64,000 nt of DNA from Pelagomonas calceolata. Taxonomy: Eukaryota; Sar; Pelagophyceae; Pelagomonadales; Pelagomonadaceae. Below are positions 8,175 to 60,918 of this stretch, one piece after another. Location of the stretch: assembly GCA_918797485.1 (NCBI GenBank), contig CAKKNE010000004.1, positions 930,001-994,000 on the forward strand, in the 5' to 3' direction. The position numbers and the translations under genes were made by a program. How positions within the stretch are numbered: the stretch's first letter is position 1; each line of letters opens with the position of its first letter. The notes under the pieces were generated by a model, which ran no database searches, was not told the DNA's origin, and saw only the letters and a program-made list of their open reading frames with translations.

Positions 8175-11100
8175 ATGGCCCAGGACATGGCCTTCAGCCC
8201 GGACCCCAGTCAGCATAACTTTACGAGTTCCGAGTACGTCGCCGACGGGGCCGTCGCCGACGACCAGGTCCAACCCTACGACAGCACGCAAGATGCACAA
8301 AAATGGTATGATGACAATGTGAACGAGGACGCCCAGCAGAAGGCGGAAAGGCTCAATAGATTGCGACTCCAGCTCGAGCGAGCCGCGGCCCGGGAAGGCA
8401 CGTCCACCGGAGCCATCCTCGAACGACTGGAGGAATATGCTCCAGTTAGAGCCGTCTGGACGGAATATTTTGATGAGGAAAACACTCCATTTTACGTGAA
8501 CGAAGCTACCGGCGAGACGCGGTGGCAGCTCCCGCGACCGGAGGAGCTCGGTCTCGAGTTAGCTCTCGATGCGCTGCTTTGCGACGACCCAAAGCTCAAG
8601 GAAGAAAAGCTCGCCGAGCTCGCGAAGAAGAAGGCCATCGACGACGAGAGTTCGCTGATGACGGGCGAGGACTACTCGTTGGAAGACCAGGAGACGCCGG
8701 AGGAGCGGGAAGCGCGCGAAGCGCGGGAACTGGAAGAACGAATAGCGTGGGAGGAGTCCGAGCGGTTGCGAATCGAGCAGGAGCGCATCGACGACGAGCA
8801 CTTCCGGCGGGGCCAGGCCGAGGCGAAGCAGGCCTCCGTTTCTCTGTTGGCTCGGAATTTCTATTTTTCCATCAAGGACGAGGTCCGTGACTCAGTGTCT
8901 GTTTCTGACGTTTTCTGAACTTCAAGGTCGCGTCGATGGCGTCAGCGCGACGCTACGCCCACGCGACGCCGTCGACGTGGTCGTCAGAGAGTCTACACGT
9001 CTCGTGAGTGGACGGAGACGGTTTCGCGACGCCGTCGTTCGACGCAGGCCTGCACGAAGCGCGTACAAGACTGGCTCACGGAGAAGCGCGACGCCCACGA
9101 GGCCCAGCAGCGGGAGATGTACCGGACGATCAAGGCGGAGTTGAAGGTGATTGTGCGGCGTCCGATGTATGTTCATCGTTGAGAGCGTCGCGGCGACGGC
9201 ACGACGCTGTCGTCACGCGACCGCGCGCAGGTCTGCCCCGCGCCGAAGCCCATCAACGAGTTCGCCGAAGCTCTAGCCGCTGCCGCTCGGGCCGACGAGG
9301 GCGAGGAGGGCGCCAACAAAGCCGTCGATACATATGAAAAAACGGAAGAGGCCTCGGCCGCCCGGAAGCTCAAGATGACCGAAGCATTGGCCAAGAGAGT
9401 CAAGAAGAGGCGCGAAGATCGCCTCGCGCTGTGGGCGGACGACGGCGACCGCGACGACGACGACGAGGCGTGCGCTTCGAATCGATTAGCTGTCGTGCTT
9501 GAAGAAGTGAAGGGGCGAGGCGCGGACTTTAGGCACCTGCGGGAAGTGAGATTAGTCGACTGTCTGATCACGGATCAAAAACTTGCGGTCTTAGTAGAGT
9601 CGTTGGGCCAAGGCTGCGTTTCCGTATTAGCGCTGGGCGGCAACCAAATCACGAATATCGGCGCGCGGACGCTGGGCGAAGCTTTACAAGCGCTAGCGCC
9701 GCTCCGCGAACTCCATCTCAACGGCAATCACATCGCCGACCCCGGCGTCGAGTTTCTGTGCAAAGGGTTATTCGGCCACTTAACCGCTGCCGAGAAGAAG
9801 GAACAACTGCGTAAAGCTAAGAGACTACAGAGGATGGCCTCCGCAAAAGCCAAAAGGTTGAACGTCAAGGGGAAAAGCAACTCGCTGACGCCTCCCCCCG
9901 TCGCGAAGCCGCAGCCGCCGTCTCGCTTGGCCGTGTTGGATCTTTGTAGCAATCCAGTCAGTCCGGAAGGCGCTCGCGCGTTGGCCGAGTCCCTGACGCT
10001 AGAACGGTGCCGCCTGACGACTTTAAGGCTAGGAGGCGTCCCCAAAACGCTAGACTGCTTCAAGCCCACCGAGGAAGGCAATAGAGCGAGGAAAGTGAAT
10101 CAAATAGTCATCGGCGACGCCGGGGCGATCATGCTCTGCGGGGCGTTGTTATTGAGTCCGGCGGTCTTGGAAGCGAAGGGCCACTCCGGTTTAGAAACGC
10201 TGTGTCTGTCGCGGTGCGGCATCGGTCAGGCCGGAGCGAGGGCATTAGCTGCCATGTTGTACTGCGAGCCTTCCCTCACATCTTTAGATATTTCCGGCAA
10301 TGCGTTGGAGGGCAAAGGCGTCGGTCGAAGCTTCAAGGAGCGGCCCCTCGCGTCGCGAGTGCTAAAGCGCGGACTGGCCGAGCCGCCGTCCGCACCCTTG
10401 CAGGACCTAGATCGATCTAGTGGACTGGCCTGTTTGGGCCGGGCGCTGGAAGCCACGTCATCCCTTAAAAGAGTACTGCACGACGATGTGGACACTGCTT
10501 CATATTTTGATAAATGCCTAGCCCTAGATCCGCCAGCGGACTGGAGTAGACGACGACGACTCGGCGTCGACGCGTGTGCGACGCGGGAATGGTTGTTGTC
10601 CTGCTTCAAGGCCGAGGGCATGGCTCTACCGTCGCCCGGCGCGCGGGAGACGGCGCTGGCGATGGAAAATGACATGACCGAGGAACCGTCGCCAGTGCTG
10701 ACGCAGCGTCCGTTTCCGACCGTTTCCGAACTTCAACCTTGTGAAGATGGCGTCAACGCCATGCTGCGGGTCTACGCGTCTCGCGAGTGAACGGTGTCCG
10801 TGCCACGCAGGTGGAGCTCCCCATCGAGGAGAAGTCCTCTCTCTCCTCAGGCGCCACGACTAGAAGAGCGTCGCAGTTCTTCCGCCACGGGTCGCTGCTG
10901 ACCGATGGCTCGGTGGACACCTGTGTGGAAATCAAATTTTACGGCGCGTTCGTGCTGCATCGTCGCGTCGACCTCCACGCCGTCGCCGCGACGCCTGCTC
11001 GATGGCGTGGCGATGCCGGTTCCTCACCGCTCGACGGAGCCAGCACTGGTTGATTTCCACACAGGTGGACACGGTGCGAACGGCGGCGTCGCCGATGCGA

Positions 11101-14100
11101 TCATCGCAGCTGGGCCGCGTCGACGAGGAACGTTTGGTGTACGAGCCGTCGTCCTTCCACGAGCGCGGCGAGCTCACGGACGAAAATTGGCAGAAAATGA
11201 GAAGGCGCGAGGACCGCGAATTCCGTTTGTCGCAGGGGCTACCCGCGTCGCCCGCCAAGAAGACAAGTGTTAAAAGACGTACTTCGTACGACCAGTACCG
11301 AAGCACCTCATCGAGGACGCCGTCGCAGATCCTGTCTTCCCTCGAACCCGTAAGTCTCCAGAGCTCATTGATCGCTTTTGATTATGGCGACGAGCTCTTC
11401 GTGGAAGGTGAGATCGACGATTCGAACGCTGCTTGTGCCGCGTGGCAGTCGCTCGACGATGCGTGCAGTGATGTGTGGCCCCTGTCCTATCTGGAGTCGC
11501 TCGTGCCGACGCCTGTCGGGGACGACGTTTTGAACGTCTTCCACACGCTTAGGAGCGCTCCGGACGACGTTCCGTTGGGTGTCTTGTTCCCTGGGGCTGA
11601 TGTCTTGGCTGAAAGGAGTGGTGTTCCCTCGCAAGCTCGCTGGGACGCGCTGTGGCGGTGTTCTCGCTGTCTCGAGGTTCTGGGCCGAGAGAGGGAGATC
11701 CGAGCCGACGCGTCCCGTGCTGTGTTAGATGCTTCACAAAAAATTGTGGAGAAGTCGATCGATCAAAGACTGAAGCGTCGATCAGACTTCTGGCAGCACC
11801 AAGAGGCTGTTGACGCTTCATATGAAGCAGCGTGTGCAGCTCTACGGAGACGCGAAGCCGTCGCGGCGCAGTGCGCGAAGGATTTGGACGAGAAGAAGGA
11901 CGCCCTTACACAACTGCTCCAGGACTGTAGAGTAGATAGAAACAATGCGAGAGATCTGGCCAAGAGTCAAGCGAAGTCGGCCAAGAAGGCCGCCCTGGCG
12001 TCGCAGCAGGCCGCGACGGCGCTGCGCAAGGCCATGAAGAAAGCTAAGGCAGACAAAGAGCAGAAACGGGCCGAGGGGAGAGAAACGATCCACGACGAGC
12101 AGGCCCAGGCGCGCGGTGCGATCGCCGCGTTTTGAACTCGTGTCCATCGCACGATGCCGTGGGTGGTTTCTTTGTTGATTTTGAGCTGTTTCGGACCGCG
12201 TCGGGGCCGTCGCGGCGTGTCAGAGAGACAGCGGTCATGGCGTCTTCACGAGACATCATCGTCGTGAACCCACGAGAGTCTACGTGGTCAGCAGGACGCC
12301 GTCGAGACCGATTTGACGGAAATGCTCCGCGCAGGCGAGACGGACGCCCGCGTCCTCGAAGCCTTGAGAGTTTCAGATGAGGCGTCCGAATATGCCGGGA
12401 AGACCGAGGACTTGAGACTGAGAGCCTTGGAGCGCGTCACGGTCGCGGAGACTTGCTTCCAACGAACTTACTTGGAGTTACTACGACTCAAAGCGGACCA
12501 CGCTGCGGCTGCGGCCGACGTCCGGGACTGGCGATTTGTATTGATGGACTTCGACCGCGCGGAGACTTGCAGGGTCATCGAACGATGTATCGATGATGAG
12601 CCGTACGGCGACCAACAAAGGAAAGATGAGGCCTTCCACGCCGCGTGTGAAGAGGATGCAACGAGAAGCGAAGACGCTACCGTACGAGCTTTTGACCTCG
12701 CGGAGCGGTTAAAAACGGCCTCCGAGACCAGAAAAGAGCAGCAGTGCTACGACGAGCACTTAGCGGAAGGTCCGTGCGGCTCGACGGCCATGGACGACGC
12801 CGTCGTCGACGCTCGACGTAAAAGAGATGCCGCGGACGCTTCTCTCGCCGCAGCTGATGCGAAACGAAGGTTACTGGTGCGGCTGAACCCCTTCGCGTCC
12901 AAGCAACTCGCTGCCGAGCTCAACGCGAACGTCATAGCCGCCACACAGTGGCGCAAGGCCTGCTGGCAGCGCTGCGGCGACGCGCTGAAGGACGCTTCCG
13001 GTTTCAAAGCAAGTATGCGGGACGGGAACCTGACGCCGCGACGACGGGCGCAGAACGACGTTTCCGTGAAGGCGAAGCATCCCTCGTCCGAGACATTGGT
13101 GACGGCCTACAACGCCGTGACGGTGAGGGCCGTCAGAGCGATCGAGTTCGAGCAGCGCGAGGAGCAGCGCGTGCGAGATGAGGCTATCAGACTGCGGGAA
13201 GAACAGCGGCGCGATCGGAACGACCAGCTTGCGCAATTGGCGAAGGTCGACCCGCGGCAAGCTGGTCATATGATTGTACAACGTATTCGAGCGATGCGCG
13301 ACGGGGGCCTGCCGGTCGATAAAGATGATTTGGACGATCTACGAGCGTTGCGCCAGTCCAAGGCCCGCGCGATCTCGGCGTCCCGGCGTGTTGGGGTGTC
13401 TTCACTTTGTTGCTGGGACTCGTATCTAGCACACGATGCCGGGGGTGGTTTCTTGTTCGAGTTTGAGGCTCCGCGCAGGCGCGAAGGGTCGACTCCGGGC
13501 CAAGCAGACGCGTCGACTCTTCAAGCGGGCCAAGGCTTTAAGGGACGACGCCTATGAAGCCGAGTCAGCAGCAAAGCACGCCCTGCAAGCTCTGATGGAC
13601 GACAAGGAACGGAAGCGCGTTGATGAGCTGTTGAGGTCCGTGACTCGGCGTGGAAACTGAACTTGAACTTGACGCGGTCGGCGCGACGGCGTCGACGCCG
13701 TCTTCATGATCACATGAGAGTCTACGCGTCTCGCGAGGGAAGTTTCGCGACAAAGTCCGTTCCACACAGGTTGGAGGCGCTCGGACTGTCACCGCCCAAG
13801 CCGAAGGTTCGTCCCAAGAAATCATTGTGGAGGCGTGTGTTTGGTTCTAGGAAGGTGATACTGGATCGACCTTTGAAAGACGAACCGCAGTGTCCGACGC
13901 AACGGCGGCTACGGGACAAGGTCCGGACCAAGGGCCTCGCGCCCCTGCCGGCCATCTCGACGATCATCAAGGACGACTTCAGCACGCACGCGGATCACGT
14001 CGTCCTGAAGCCGAAGAAGAAGCGCTTCGAGCCGGGGAAGCCTCTGGACCTCTCGAAGGCGATCTGCTACGACTCGGACGAGTCGTCGGAGGGGGACTTG

Positions 14101-30095: not shown

Positions 30096-31935
30096 TCACA
30101 CTTTAGGTTCCTCTAGTAGAGGTTTTCGCTCCTCGTCATCATTCGTGCCGCACGCGTCCCTTCCAAATGAGAGGACGCCGTCGCGGAGGAACGGCAGGCC
30201 GGCCACGATGAGTAGCGGCGACGTGAGCGAGAGCGCCAAAACGACGAGCCAGACGGTACGCGGGTCTGGAGCGGTATCAGTAAACCCTGGACACGCCGGA
30301 CAGGCCGCCGGGCAGCTAGGACTCAGCGCCGCCGCGCAGGTCCCACCGGCGGCCGACACGCACGCGTCACCGGCGGCGACGGCGCAGAATCGCCCGAGCT
30401 CGTCCCGGCAACCTGGACAGTTCGGATTGAACTCGCGGTTCAGCCAGCCCACGAGCACGGTGGACGGCCAGGCGAGGAAGAGGTCCTTCAGAGAGGCAAG
30501 CGCCAAGAACAGCCCTTCCCGGCCCGGCGGCGCGAGACTCACGGCCCAGGCCTGCTGGCGCGGACTCCACAGCACCTCGCCGGCCGTGAGCCAGGCTTCC
30601 CAGACGACAGCACCCGGCGCCGTCGGCGAGACGATCATCGCAATCGGAGACGTGGCCATGATCCACACGCCCGGCACGATGATTCTAAAGGCCTCGGAAT
30701 CAGAGGTGAACGCAGCAACAATAGGTGGCAGCAAGAAGCACCTGTGTGGAAATCAACCAGTGCGTCGGGTGCACCCGATAATTCTTTCGCATCGAGCAGG
30801 CGTCGCGTCGATGGCGAACGCGCCGTAAAATTTGATTCCACACAGAAAGCACCCCCACATACCGACGCTGTGCACGAGGAAGATGCCCCCGCCCTCGCCG
30901 AATTGTCTCTCCAGAAAGGGAGGCAGCAGTTGATCCACCTGCGTGGAAATCAAATTTCGGGCGCCCCACGCCATCGACGCGAGATGCCCACGTAACCGCG
31001 TCTGGTCGCAACCTAACTCACTGGTTGATTTCCACACAGGTCGCGACCTCGGTCCACTGCTTCGCGACGCCGAAGACAGCCAGCGACATCGCGACGACGC
31101 GCCAGATCTCCCGCGTGCGCAGCGTCGCCGCCACGTCGCTCCACTTGGCCGAGGGGCGCCCGCCCGCGTGGCTCGCGACGACGCGGAGAGTGGCCGCCTG
31201 GCGCGCGGCTTCTCGGGTTTGCCACGCGCGCCACGCTGTCAGGGAATAGCTCGTCGGTGGCGGCGCCGACGCCACGGGGCTGCCGTCGTCGGCCTCGACG
31301 ACGCTCTCGTCGCGGAGGTGGAGCGCGACCAAGAGCCACGACGCGCAGACGACGACGAAGGTGAGCACGAGGAACTGGCGCGTGGGCGTATAGACCTCGC
31401 CGAAGAGTAATGCGTCGCCGCGGCGGCGGAACGCGTCGATGCAGACGTCCGCGAGCGCTCCGGAGAGATTAAATGTTGCATATTCGACAGCAAACGCAAA
31501 GGCGCGCGTCTTGGGCGTCGTCAGCTTCTTCAGAGCGACGCGGTAGAGGCCCGTGGCGAGTAAAGCTTCCCCCGCCGGCGAGAAGAGATAGAACGCCGCG
31601 TGGATCGCCGTCCGAGACCGACCGAACGCGAGGAGCCCGCGACCGACGACGGACACGCTCAGCGCCGTCAGCGCGACGCGCCGTACCCCTACGGCGTCCG
31701 TCAGCACCGCGCCGATGAGTCCAAAAGCGACGTGCAGCGAGGCGGAAGTGCCCAGCACGCTCGCGGCCTCGAGGTCGTCGTGGCCGAACTCGTTCGTCAG
31801 GTAGAGCTGCTGGACGAATCGTAAGCCAAAACTACGGAAGGAGTTGAGGAACACGAGTAGCAGCACGAGCCGCACCGAGTTCGGCAATGCCGTGAACGCA
31901 ACCACATTATCGCGGAACTTGGCAGCAGCTGTCAT
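30096..31935 (-). CDS. Major-facilitator-superfamily transporter (3 exons, two introner introns)
   Basis: Minus exons 31048-31935, 30853-30938 and 30096-30741 give 539 aa. About 12 hydrophobic segments, a GVRRVALT loop after helix 2-3, and the central acidic loop fit an MFS permease. The block rebuilt by splicing, WTEVDQLLPPFLERQFGEG, matches the segment after the central loop in an MFS branch. A Cys-rich extramembrane loop (CPGCRDELGRFC to CPACPGF) is unusual. Both introns are TIR-family introners inserted in opposite orientations. The substrate is unknown. Confidence 0.8.
30742..30852 (-). mobile_element. Introner copy 2 (TIR family A), intron 2 of MFS gene
   Basis: The element at 30742-30845 (104 bp) has ends CTGTGTGGAAATC and GATTCCACACAG. 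The flanks GAAGCAC (30735-30741) and AAAGCAC (30846-30852) form a 7-bp target duplication with one mismatch. On the gene strand the donor GTGCTTT is the flank copy, and the acceptor is the element's terminal CAG. Splicing rebuilds MWGCFLLPP in phase 2. Same internal orientation relative to its gene as copy 1. Confidence 0.88.
30939..31047 (-). mobile_element. Introner copy 3 (TIR family A), intron 1 of MFS gene
   Basis: The element at 30939-31039 (101 bp) has one mutated end base (CTGCGTGG). It is inserted in the opposite orientation to copies 1, 2 and 5 relative to transcription. The gene-strand donor is GTCGCG in the upstream flank and the acceptor is the terminal CAG, followed by GTGGATCA. 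Flank similarity is weak, so the duplication has decayed or changed. Phase 0 is kept. Confidence 0.82.
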
Positions 31936-41215: not shown

Positions 41216-43151
41216 TTAGCTATCATCCACGTCCTTCTGAAAGACTCGCTCAAGGAACGCCGAATTCGTGACGCCGGCCGGCCGCTCATCCGCTATAGAT
41301 GGAGGCAGCTCCGCCCGCACCAAGTCGACGCCGTCGAACGCGTCCAACATCTCCCGCAGCGCGTCGAAGTCAGCATCATCCCCTACGGAAGTACATGTCC
41401 CCCGGGACGCCTGGCCGACGCGGCCCGCCCGGCCCGCCACATGCGCGTACGTCGCAGGACCGCCCTCCGTAACATCACCAACTCGATACACATGACTGAC
41501 GTTCGGGAAGTCGAGACCGCGCGCAGCGGACGGCACCGTCACGAGCACGGTCGCGCCGTCTCGTGCCGCGACCTCTGCAAACGAATCGTCCGTCGCCGAC
41601 GCGCGCGCCATGCTGCCGGCCGCGACCGTCGGGGAGCCGCCCTCCGTCGGGAGGAGGGCGGCGACGGCGTGGGCGCCCCATAGCGACGTTCTCAGCTGCC
41701 TTGCTAACGCGTCGGCCGACGTCTCGTTGGCGGCGAAGACCACGGCCCTCGGTCTCGGGCCTTGACCGGACTCCTCCCACTCCCTCAAATCCCGCCTCAG
41801 ACACCGCGCCAAGATGAGCGGCCTTTTCCACTCGGGAACGTCGAGGAACTCGTGTCTTACGGAAGAGGGCGTTCGTATCTTTTCCTGGGTCAGGGAGAAG
41901 GGCTCAGTGCCACTCTCCGTGGCCTTCGTGGCCGTGCCGTTTCTCAGTAAAGAACTCGCGTCGGTTAACGTGGCGCCCACTAACACACGAGGCACCTTTG
42001 CCAAGCCCAGCGTCTCGAGGATATCTGCGGAGACATCACCACAAGCGTCGGCCTCGTCCACACAAACTAATTTGATATGTGACGTGTCCATGAGGTCCGG
42101 CGCCTCCTTCAACGCGTCTCGCAGCGTAGCAGCGTCGGCGACCAGCACGTCGCAGTCCGCCAAGTCATCAGGTAACGTCGACGAGGGCGTAAAGGTCCCC
42201 CCATAGTCGTCGTACCCGAAATCATCGGTCTTCTCCACGACGATCCGCCTTTCCTTGGCCGCGGCGACGGCTCTGTCCAAATCCGCGTCCGACGCGAGAG
42301 CCGCGACCCGACAGCCCTTCGGGCCCTTGTAGGCGAAGAGTGAGGAAGCGTCGCCGGGGAAGTAGCTGCCTTGGTTCCTATTGGTCCCGCCGACCTGTGT
42401 GGAAATCTTCGCGTCGACCTCCACGCCATCGATCCGACGCCGGCTCGATGGCGTGGCGATGCCGGTTCCTCACCACTGGTTGATTTCCACACAGGTCGAC
42501 TACGATCGTAAAACACGCCGTTCCCAATTGAAGAGCTAAGGCGCGCGACGGACACAACACCAACGCCAAAGGTGCTCCTCGAGGATCCCCAAACCGCGGC
42601 GGCCGGAAGCCTTCCAAATTCTGCGCGCTCGTCCACAGGGCTGGACTGAAGGTCGCCATCGCCGCTTGTGGAGTTAACAAGCCGAGATTGCTGCCCGCGT
42701 CGAGCTGCGTGCGTTCCCGTTCCGCGAGCTTCGTGTCGAGCACCGCGAGGAGAGGTGCGAGAAAGGCCAACGTCTTGCCGCTGCCTGTGGGTGCCGAGAC
42801 GACGACATCTGTCGAGCCGTCGACGGCATCTAACGCAGCTTCTTGCACCGGTGTGGGGAACCTCATCCCTAGGTCTTGCAGTCGCGCTTGCAGCCAGCCG
42901 GGCGCGCCTCGCGACGCCCAATCTCCAGACTTCGTCGTCGCACCGCCGTTGATCGCTTCTAGTTTCTTCTTCAACTCTGCTGCTTTACGGAAGTCCTCCT
43001 GCTGCACGGCGGCGTTCAATTGGGTCATGAGAGCGTTCACGTCGTCGGCGGCGGCGGCTCTGACGGGCGCGAGGCTCTGAACATGGCGTGGTGGCCGCTG
43101 GAAGGCGCGCGTTTGTAGTATTATCGCAACGACGAGGGCTGGTCGATGCAT
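41216..43151 (-). CDS. UVR-motif DEAD-box RNA helicase, probably plastid (2 exons)
   Basis: Minus exons 42501-43151 and 41216-42394 give 609 aa. The N-terminus (MHRPALVVAIILQTRAFQRPP) resembles a bipartite plastid presequence with AF. A UVR motif follows (LNAAVQQEDFRKAAELKKKLEAI). Helicase motifs seen are the Q-motif region (GMRFPTPVQ), I (APTGSGKT), II (VDEAD), III (VGAT), V (ATVLVTVPSAARGLDFP) and VI (HVAGRAGRVG). The two RecA lobes are widely spaced by an insert. The intron is introner copy 4. Role: RNA remodelling, perhaps in plastid ribosome assembly (inference). Confidence 0.85.
42395..42500 (-). mobile_element. Introner copy 4 (TIR family A), intron of DEAD-box gene
   Basis: The element at 42395-42494 (100 bp) has ends CTGTGTGGAAATC and GATTTCCACACAG. 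The flanks GCCGAC and GTCGAC are a 6-bp duplication with one mismatch. On the gene strand the donor is GTCGAC in the flank and the acceptor is the terminal CAG, phase 0, restoring FTIVVGGTNRN. The internal GT of the element cannot keep frame here. Reverse orientation relative to transcription, like copy 3. Confidence 0.88.
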
Positions 43152-59884: not shown

Positions 59885-60918
59885 TTACGCACACGTCGCC
59901 AGCAGTCGCGGCACGACGGTCGGATGCTTCCGCCCGAGCGCCGCCGCGCACGCTTCCGCGCGACGCCGCCATGCCGCTGCGCAGGAGCGGTCCGATGAAC
60001 CACGAGCGCAGGCGCGGGCGACGCCGTCGAAGCCACCGTCCGCCGGGCGGCCATCAGACGCCGCGTAGGCTCGCAAGCGCGCCAACCATGGCTTCACGCG
60101 CGTCAGACAATCAGTAGTCGCATTGTCGGAGCCGCGAAAGAAGCCCACCTTCGCCACACCCAGGAACTGCGCGAAGGCGACGGCATGCGCGCGCGGGTGC
60201 CGCGCCGCCAAGTCGTAGGAGAGGAAGAAGGTCCGCCGGCAGTCGAGGCCTTTGATGGCCTTCTCGAGGCGCGCGACCGCTTTGGCGTAAAACGCTTCTT
60301 CGCGGTGCAGCGTGTCGACGCGGCCCCCGTCCATATCCCTAAACTTCCAGAAGCGCCTCAATATACTCTCCTGCGTCGCCACGGCGTCCCTCACCAGGAC
60401 GACGTGCCAGCGGCCTTTGTCCACGACGGGATACTTCGGCGCGTCATTACTAAAGCAGCGCCAGGCGCTCCCGCGGCGCGCGCGGCTCCGCGCCTTTACA
60501 TACACAACTTTGGCGCCGACGCGCGACTCGGAGCAACACCCGCCACAACTGGAAAAGGAAAACTGGCCGCCGCACCGCTTCAGCTTGCCGCCGCCGCCGC
60601 AGAGGCGCCGCGGCAGGCCCTCGAGCCAGTGGTGACCTGTGTGGAAATCAATGCAGTTACGTACGGGAAGACGCGTCGCGTCGATGGCGGGGCGTCCGAA
60701 ATTTGATTTCCACACAGGTGGTGGCCCACGCCCTCGGTGCCCAGGGTCTTGAAGTTCGAGCCCTTGGGCTTCGGGCGCCAGCCGTGTTGGCGTTGGGCGG
60801 CGAGGCAGCGGCCCGCGGTGCTTGCGGGCGGCCAGAGGCGTGATGCTACGTCGAAATATTCAGTCGCGTTCTCGGGCCGCGCGGCCGCCGCGGTTATGAC
60901 GGCGAGGAGGCGGCGCAT
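59885..60918 (-). CDS. Sulfotransferase-like protein (2 exons, introner intron)
   Basis: Minus exons 60726-60918 and 59885-60636 give 314 aa. KTLGTEGVGHHWLEG, rebuilt by splicing, and the later VVLVRDAVATQESILRRFWKF and RTFFLSYDLAARHP follow the P-loop sulfotransferase pattern of a 5'-PAPS-binding segment and a 3'-phosphate-binding RDxxxxxxS stretch. A short hydrophobic N-terminus (MRRLLAVITAAAA) could be a Golgi signal-anchor. Many Cys suggest a lumenal location. The substrate (glycan, lipid or small molecule) is unknown. The intron is introner copy 5. Confidence 0.68.
60637..60725 (-). mobile_element. Introner copy 5 (TIR family A), intron of sulfotransferase gene
   Basis: The element at 60637-60717 (81 bp, the shortest) has ends CTGTGTGGAAATC and GATTTCCACACAG. 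The flanks GTGGTGAC and GTGGTGGC are an 8-bp duplication with one mismatch. On the gene strand the upstream flank reads GCCACCAC, so the donor is GC where the intact copy has GT. The element's internal GT 12 bp later also keeps frame. Splicing from the flank restores EGVGHHWLEG. Confidence 0.85.

What the first reader, a model, noticed from the sequence alone, without database searches (positions are those of the whole stretch)
10913..11072. A transposon-like element that is exactly an intron, with the splice donor in its target-site duplication
The 144-bp element has 13-bp terminal inverted repeats and a perfect 8-bp flanking repeat GTGGACAC. Splicing from GT of the left repeat to the element's own CACACAG removes one repeat plus the element and returns the pre-insertion sequence in frame. 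Sequence shows the repeats and phase. Known work on introner elements in Aureococcus and Micromonas describes such DNA-element intron gain. That this copy is young is inference from the perfect repeat.
Basis: partly seen in the sequence, partly recalled or inferred. Interest (0 to 1): 0.9.

Follow-up and report, generated by a model that had tools for sequence, protein, structure and literature searches.

The report
A transposon that doubles as intron
A short mobile DNA element has landed in the coding part of an alga's gene in such a way that the cell should cut it out of the message exactly, so the insertion made a new intron; this is a well-documented process, and this copy is a typical member of a family of about a thousand.

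Summary
Element 10921-11064 (144 bp) has perfect terminal inverted repeats (15 bp, not 13) and a perfect 8-bp duplication GTGGACAC. The genome matches Pelagomonas calceolata RCC100. In my model it is intron 4 of a WW/LRR-protein gene, and an 88%-identical environmental homologue is continuous across the junction. About 1,250 element ends per strand exist. Of 77 sampled copies, 59 have their best coding signal on one strand in both flanks, and 53 of these keep phase when duplication plus element is removed; the four window copies are not among the 53. In the 53 the coding-strand duplication begins GT (33) or GC (20); its far end is unconstrained. The donor rule thus looks like a splicing filter, not a palindromic target. 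Orientation is 26:27. The full element is 203 bp; this copy has a private 58-bp deletion and is 4.2% diverged, so "young" is not specially supported. It is an ordinary DNA introner of the Aureococcus type; introner-length introns in P. calceolata are in print. No transposase partner was found, and splicing was not seen in RNA.

The parts
10913..10920 (+). left target-site duplication GTGGACAC; its GT is the predicted 5' splice site
   Evidence: sequence; GT or GC there in 53 of 53 sampled copies with consistent coding context, which do not include this copy
10921..11064 (-). 144-bp introner, family A, lying in reverse of the canonical orientation relative to the gene; a 203-bp element with a 58-bp internal deletion and one further missing base
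10921..10935 (+). left terminal inverted repeat, 15 bp, perfect
11050..11064 (+). right terminal inverted repeat TTGATTTCCACACAG, ending in the predicted 3' splice site AG; TTGAT as branch-point-like motif is my inference from recalled consensus
   Evidence: motif reading inferred
11043..11044 (.). junction of the private internal deletion (consensus positions 22-79 missing)
   Evidence: junction 15-mer found once in the 32.4-Mb genome, at this copy
11065..11072 (+). right target-site duplication GTGGACAC, predicted to stay in the message as codons of V-D-T
10913..11064 (+). predicted intron 4 (152 nt, phase 0): one duplication copy plus element
   Evidence: homologue P0001 continuous across it
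8175..12135 (+). host gene, modelled part: exons 8175-8882, 9048-9146, 9231-10694, 10811-10912, 11065 to about 12115; WW domain and leucine-rich repeats; the homologues show it continues to about 14133. Exons 1-2 have no homologue support here, and at the exon 3/4 join P0001 differs by about two residues

Best explanation
This is a non-autonomous DNA transposon (MITE-like introner) that inserted into an exon and became a spliceosomal intron. Insertion duplicated 8 bp (GTGGACAC). The left duplication supplies the GT donor, and the element's terminal repeat supplies the AG acceptor, probably with branch site and pyrimidine tract in the same 15 bp. Because the two terminal repeats are identical in inverted orientation, either orientation ends in a 3' splice site. 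Insertions whose duplication starts with GT or GC on the coding strand are the ones kept, because they can be spliced out exactly. After insertion this copy lost 58 internal bp by a private deletion (and one further base), so the intron shrank from 211 to 152 nt. Shown from sequence: the repeats, the frame, the family, the donor pattern, the private deletion and the continuous homologue. Inferred: actual splicing in the cell, selection as the cause of the donor pattern, the branch site, transposase mobilisation, and that the deletion came after insertion.
For: Perfect 15-bp inverted repeats and 8-bp duplication. 1261 and 1255 ends on the two strands and 343 exact-end pairs, with reversed controls 0 for the pairs. 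Of 77 sampled copies, 59 show best coding signal on the same strand in both flanks, and 53 of those share one phase after removal of duplication plus element. In the 57 with flanks of 240 bp or more it is 40 of 44 same-strand, against one third expected, p 2e-15. In the 53, the coding-strand duplication starts GT 33, GC 20, other 0 (GY expected 0.167 in coding sequence); in the 38 of them with the strongest coding score it is GT 26, GC 12. RC at its far end is 13 of 53 against 0.174 expected, p 0.20. Orientation relative to the gene is 26:27. Homologue P0001 (1340 aa, 88% identity, longest contig 4512 bp) reads ...LLTDGS-VDT-VRT... across the junction. Full-length element plus duplication is 211 nt, matching the published intron-length peak near 210 bp in P. 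calceolata.
Against: No RNA reads were available. P0001 may be a spliced transcript, a spliced gene call or an intron-poor relative; this cannot be told from the record. In the automatic coding test 18 of 77 sampled copies gave best signals on different strands and 6 more on one strand but in different phases. All 4 window copies are among these 24, this one with different strands (its modelled upstream exon is only 102 bp). 20 of the 77 were read with only 40-bp flanks, where the signal is weak. 3 of 77 have no usable donor on either strand. Substitution divergence does not support shorter copies being older (p 0.67), although duplication decay does. No mobilising transposase was linked.
Confidence: 0.93

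Rival explanations
1. Ordinary MITE insertion that is not spliced: the element breaks the gene, and the splice-site match is a by-product of the inverted-repeat sequence.
For: No RNA evidence; this copy's own flanks, and those of the other 3 window copies, gave inconsistent coding signal in the automatic test.
Against: Reading phase continues across excision in 53 of 59 same-strand copies, and the coding-strand duplication starts GY in 53 of 53. The homologue is continuous across the exact junction.
Confidence: 0.03
2. The GY donor rule is a target preference of the transposase (palindromic GYnnnnRC) rather than a splicing filter.
For: Many duplications look palindromic by eye (GTCTGCGC, GTGGACAC); 74 of 77 copies have GY at one end or RC at the other.
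Against: In coding-strand orientation the far end shows RC in only 13 of 53, expected 0.174, p 0.20. A target preference would be symmetric, since orientation is 26:27. GT is kept 3.6-fold over GC relative to coding-sequence frequencies, as splicing would favour.
Confidence: 0.12
3. RNA-mediated intron transposition (reverse splicing) copied an existing intron into this site.
For: The sampled copies with clear coding context behave as introns, as copied introns would.
Against: Perfect terminal inverted repeats, an 8-bp locus-specific duplication and both orientations equally are marks of DNA transposition; reverse splicing predicts one orientation and no such duplication.
Confidence: 0.02

Closest known systems
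Introner elements of Aureococcus anophagefferens (Huff, Zilberman, Roy 2016; not held here, known through passages of PMC9481584, PMC9860276 and PMC7789003)
   Same: A pelagophyte alga too; DNA element with terminal inverted repeats and direct repeats, about 210-nt introns, canonical-type splicing
   Different: Sequence homology to Aureococcus elements not tested; the donors here are GT or GC (33:20 in the sample)
Introner-length introns of Pelagomonas calceolata (Commun Biol 2022, PMC9481584, passages read)
   Same: Probably this very family: intron-length peak about 210 bp, and 203 + 8 = 211 here; same genome by size, contig number and organelle lengths
   Different: The main-text passages seen give no repeats, duplication, donor rule or deletion history; its Supplementary Note 3 could not be read
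Introners of Symbiodinium microadriaticum, Fig. 2B legend of Gozashti et al. 2022 (PMC9860276)
   Same: [quoted passage not shown] has inverted repeats
   Different: 4-bp duplication there, 8-bp here
Amoebophrya introners (PMC7789003, passages)
   Same: Inverted repeats that can pair intron ends, direct repeats at exon borders
   Different: Direct repeats of 3-5 nt, mostly non-canonical splice sites, no family-specific terminal repeat reported in the passage read

Membership tests
Introner (DNA-transposon type) | Many near-identical intronic copies at unrelated gene positions | tested here: met
   343 exact-end pairs, and 1261 and 1255 ends on the two strands with at most 1 mismatch; 53 of 77 sampled copies in consistent coding context
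Introner (DNA-transposon type) | Excision restores the pre-insertion reading frame | tested here: met
   53 of 59 same-strand sampled copies keep phase; window gene model open through 1147 aa; the window copy itself was not settled by the automatic test
Introner (DNA-transposon type) | Target-site duplication and terminal inverted repeats | tested here: met
   Perfect 8-bp duplication in 44 of 77, shuffled mean 0.63; 15-bp repeats
Introner (DNA-transposon type) | Spliced in RNA | not testable with these tools
   No RNA reads; P0001 is continuous across the junction but transcript or genome cannot be told
Introner (DNA-transposon type) | Absent at the orthologous position in a relative | tested here: inconclusive
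   P0001 lacks the element at V-D-T, but may be cDNA or a spliced gene call; P0002 is too diverged at that point
MITE | Short, no transposase frame, with autonomous partner sharing the ends | tested here: inconclusive
   Short and, at 144-203 bp, too short to encode a transposase; no partner found in five Pfam searches, where the P-element and KDZ searches had no ringing control
hAT superfamily | 8-bp duplication and hAT transposase between the same ends | tested here: inconclusive
   8-bp duplication fits; the single hAT-dimerisation hit (26.1 bits, over its cut-off of 21.4) has no matching end (best 4 mismatches of 13) in the 9.5 kb around it
Aureococcus introner family (by descent) | Sequence homology to Aureococcus elements | not tested

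The most novel reading that the evidence does not exclude
The family shows an intron life cycle in sequence. Copies are born as uniform 211-nt introns with a full 3' splice site encoded in each inverted repeat. They survive only when the duplication gives GY on the coding strand. They then erode by copy-private deletions that often begin at the tip of a built-in 16-bp palindrome (14 of 45 deletions start at positions 30-34, null mean 1.8, maximum 8 in 5000), giving ordinary-length introns that still fold end to end (stem of 18 bp, z -5.3, for the window copy, the only one folded).
Probability: 0.3. Interest if true: 0.55.

Novelty: new member of a known kind. Interest (0 to 1): 0.38.

Why it matters
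It supports from raw sequence how DNA transposons make introns in bulk in an abundant ocean alga. It also points to a usable test set: about 1,250 ends per strand in a 32-Mb genome, in which the one-sided donor rule separates splicing selection from insertion preference. If the erosion pattern holds genome-wide, it would show how fresh, uniform introners turn into ordinary introns.

Tried and rejected
Mobilising transposase: Pfam searches of the own genome for hAT dimerisation (1 hit), P element, KDZ/Zisupton, MULE and Merlin/IS1595 (0 each). The hAT hit has no matching ends nearby. The P and KDZ searches rang in none of the 14 control genomes, so they do not show absence; the MULE search rang in 4 controls and the Merlin search in 1. 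The 8-bp duplication sizes that guided this choice of families are recalled.

Copies in viruses or bacteria: one exact-end pattern (span 186-216 bp) gave 0 in viral contigs and 0 in genome contigs.

"Shorter copies are older": duplication decay agrees (all sampled: perfect in 31 of 39 at 195-210 bp against 8 of 30 under 160 bp, p 2e-5; family-A-like: 29 of 35 against 6 of 18, p 6e-4), but substitution divergence shows no difference (p 0.67). So the ageing reading stays open. Microhomology at deletion junctions: mean 1.09 against null mean 0.74, null maximum 1.29, so not used as evidence.

Rows dropped before counting: L001-L004 (same places as the centres of L005-L008), L025 (short form of L028, no end pairs), L026 (a mistyped region, holding one further exact copy that was not counted), and copies closer than 30 bp to a locus end. 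A first gene model had off-by-one exon borders and broke the frame; it was corrected.

Full report
What is there. The element at 10921-11064 is 144 bp, flanked by GTGGACAC at 10913-10920 and 11065-11072. The window lies at G000:C4:930001-994000 of a 32,445,274-bp genome in 8 contigs, two of them 90,574 and 39,373 bp. This matches Pelagomonas calceolata RCC100: six nuclear contigs of 32.4 Mb, a plastid of 90 kb and a mitochondrion of 39 kb (PMC9481584, passages read). The organism is therefore inferred, with high confidence.

The host gene. Joining 8175-8882, 9048-9146, 9231-10694, 10811-10912 and 11065-12135 gives an open frame of 1147 aa. Introns 1-4 all lie in phase 0, and intron 4 is exactly the left duplication plus the element. 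Each of these introns brings an in-frame stop if retained; intron 4 (152 nt) also shifts the frame. The protein has a WW domain and leucine-rich repeats. A protein search, in which only the 7,999 best candidates were scored, returned two homologues. P0001 (1340 aa, 88% identity over the searched part, longest contig 4512 bp) reads ...FFRHGSLLTDGS-VDT-VRT..., precisely the predicted junction. Its coding part takes 4020 of at most 4512 bases, so its contig cannot hold introns totalling more than about 490 bp. It may be a spliced transcript, a spliced gene call or an intron-poor relative; the record does not tell which. P0001 and P0002 begin at residue 318, so exons 1 and 2 are unsupported, and at the exon 3/4 join P0001 differs by about two residues. 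P0002 (51%) is too diverged at the junction to inform. Both show that the gene runs on to about 14133, so the true exon 5 probably ends near 12115 rather than at the 12135 stop.

The family. Pairs of exact 13-bp ends occur 150 times with a total span of 106-166 bp and 193 times with 186-226 bp, with 0 for the reversed pattern in both. The 15-bp end with at most one mismatch occurs 1261 and 1255 times on the two strands (control 2 and 0). If each element has one end on each strand, that is about 1,250 elements; unpaired ends are included. The full-length form is 203 bp. With the 8-bp duplication it makes a 211-nt intron, matching the published intron-length peak of about 210 bp in this alga. 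The window copy is a family-A element in reverse orientation lacking consensus positions 22-79 and one further base. Its deletion junction occurs once in the genome, at this copy, so this deletion form did not spread.

The test for intron behaviour. I sampled 77 copies with at most 1 mismatch per end. 30 lie in 10-kb tiles around the first 20 places, every other such pair in the tiles included. 42 lie in 40 loci from the start of the list (20 loci with about 600-bp flanks, 20 with 40-bp flanks). 4 lie in the window and 1 in L027. A codon model from 79 long frames of the window and tiles scored both flanks in six frames. 59 of 77 had their best signal on the same strand, and 53 of these on the same phase after removal of duplication plus element. 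In the 57 with flanks of 240 bp or more it was 40 of 44 (one third expected, p 2e-15). 18 of 77 had best signals on different strands and 6 on one strand but in different phases. All 4 window copies are among these 24; for the copy in question the modelled upstream exon is only 102 bp.

The donor rule. In the 53 consistent copies the coding-strand duplication begins GT in 33, GC in 20 and anything else in 0, over both strands (29 plus, 24 minus). GY is expected at 0.167 in coding sequence. The mirror position, RC at the far end, is 13 of 53 against 0.174 expected, p 0.20. A palindromic target preference would constrain both ends; a splicing filter constrains only the donor end. GT is kept 3.6-fold over GC relative to coding-sequence frequencies. 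Of all 77, 3 have no usable donor on either strand. Orientation relative to the gene is 26:27, as expected if each inverted repeat carries a complete 3' splice site. The reading of TTGATTTCCACACAG as branch site, pyrimidine tract and AG is inference from recalled consensus.

Age and erosion. The copy is 4.2% from the family-A consensus, tied rank 25-27 of 77 and of the 59 family-A-like copies, and 44 of 77 sampled copies have a perfect duplication, so nothing singles it out as young. Family-A-like copies under 165 bp have a perfect duplication in 6 of 18 cases against 29 of 35 at 195 bp or more (p 6e-4), but substitution divergence does not differ (p 0.67). Of 35 deletions of 10 bp or more, 34 are distinct. 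Of 45 deletions of 3 bp or more, 14 start at positions 30-34, at or just past the centre of a perfect 16-bp palindrome (positions 23-38; null mean 1.8, maximum 8 in 5000); a few short ones there may be shared subfamily variants, and the window copy's own deletion starts earlier, at 22. The window intron folds with an 18-bp stem joining its ends (z -5.3); whether this helps splicing is untested.

What moves it. Searches for hAT dimerisation, P element, KDZ, MULE and Merlin domains gave one hAT hit (26.1 bits, over its cut-off) without matching ends nearby. The superfamily stays unknown.

What is known. Huff and colleagues (2016) described such introners in Aureococcus and Micromonas; that paper is not held and is known here through others. 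Gozashti et al. 2022 (PMC9860276: abstract, passages and sections 10 and 26 read) describe introners that carry the 3' splice site and take the 5' one from the duplication (legend of their Fig. 2B). Amoebophrya work (PMC7789003, passages) says Aureococcus introners always have direct and terminal inverted repeats of constant length. A mirusvirus paper was read in passages (PMC12768974) and was of no direct bearing. The P. calceolata paper mentions introner-length introns and a Supplementary Note that I could not read. I therefore file this as a new member of a known kind, and the family itself as probably already noticed.

Noticed in passing
window 8883-9047, 10695-10810 and 13693-13741: Modelled introns 1 and 3 of the same gene share a 70-nt repeat at 76% identity, and a related piece lies between coding parts further on; an 18-mer from it occurs 177 times in the genome with at most 2 mismatches (reversed control 1). 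A second, older-looking repeat family that sits in introns here.
   Followed up: partly
window 12136-12185 and 13418-13467: A 50-nt repeat at 82% identity in two further gaps between coding parts of the gene; a 24-mer from it occurs 91 times in the genome with at most 3 mismatches, control 0, with a cluster of 10 at 4.83-4.94 Mb of contig 4.
   Followed up: partly
window 30742-31039: One left end at 30742 without partner and a second left end (1 mismatch) at 30939 paired with a right end at 31027-31039: looks like two introner insertions side by side or nested, duplication decayed.
   Followed up: no
window 42395-42494 and 60637-60717: Two more shortened introners; the first has no matching duplication (0 of 8), the second 7 of 8.
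   Followed up: partly
L025 / L028 (G000:C4:4496000-4505500): The only hAT dimerisation-domain match found in the genome (26.1 bits, over the cut-off) in a long open frame, without introner-like ends nearby; possibly a domesticated or unrelated hAT transposase.
   Followed up: partly
L017:4929-5073: The donor copy of the duplication reads GT while the exon copy reads GC, a possible case of a GC donor improved to GT after insertion; one case only.
   Followed up: no
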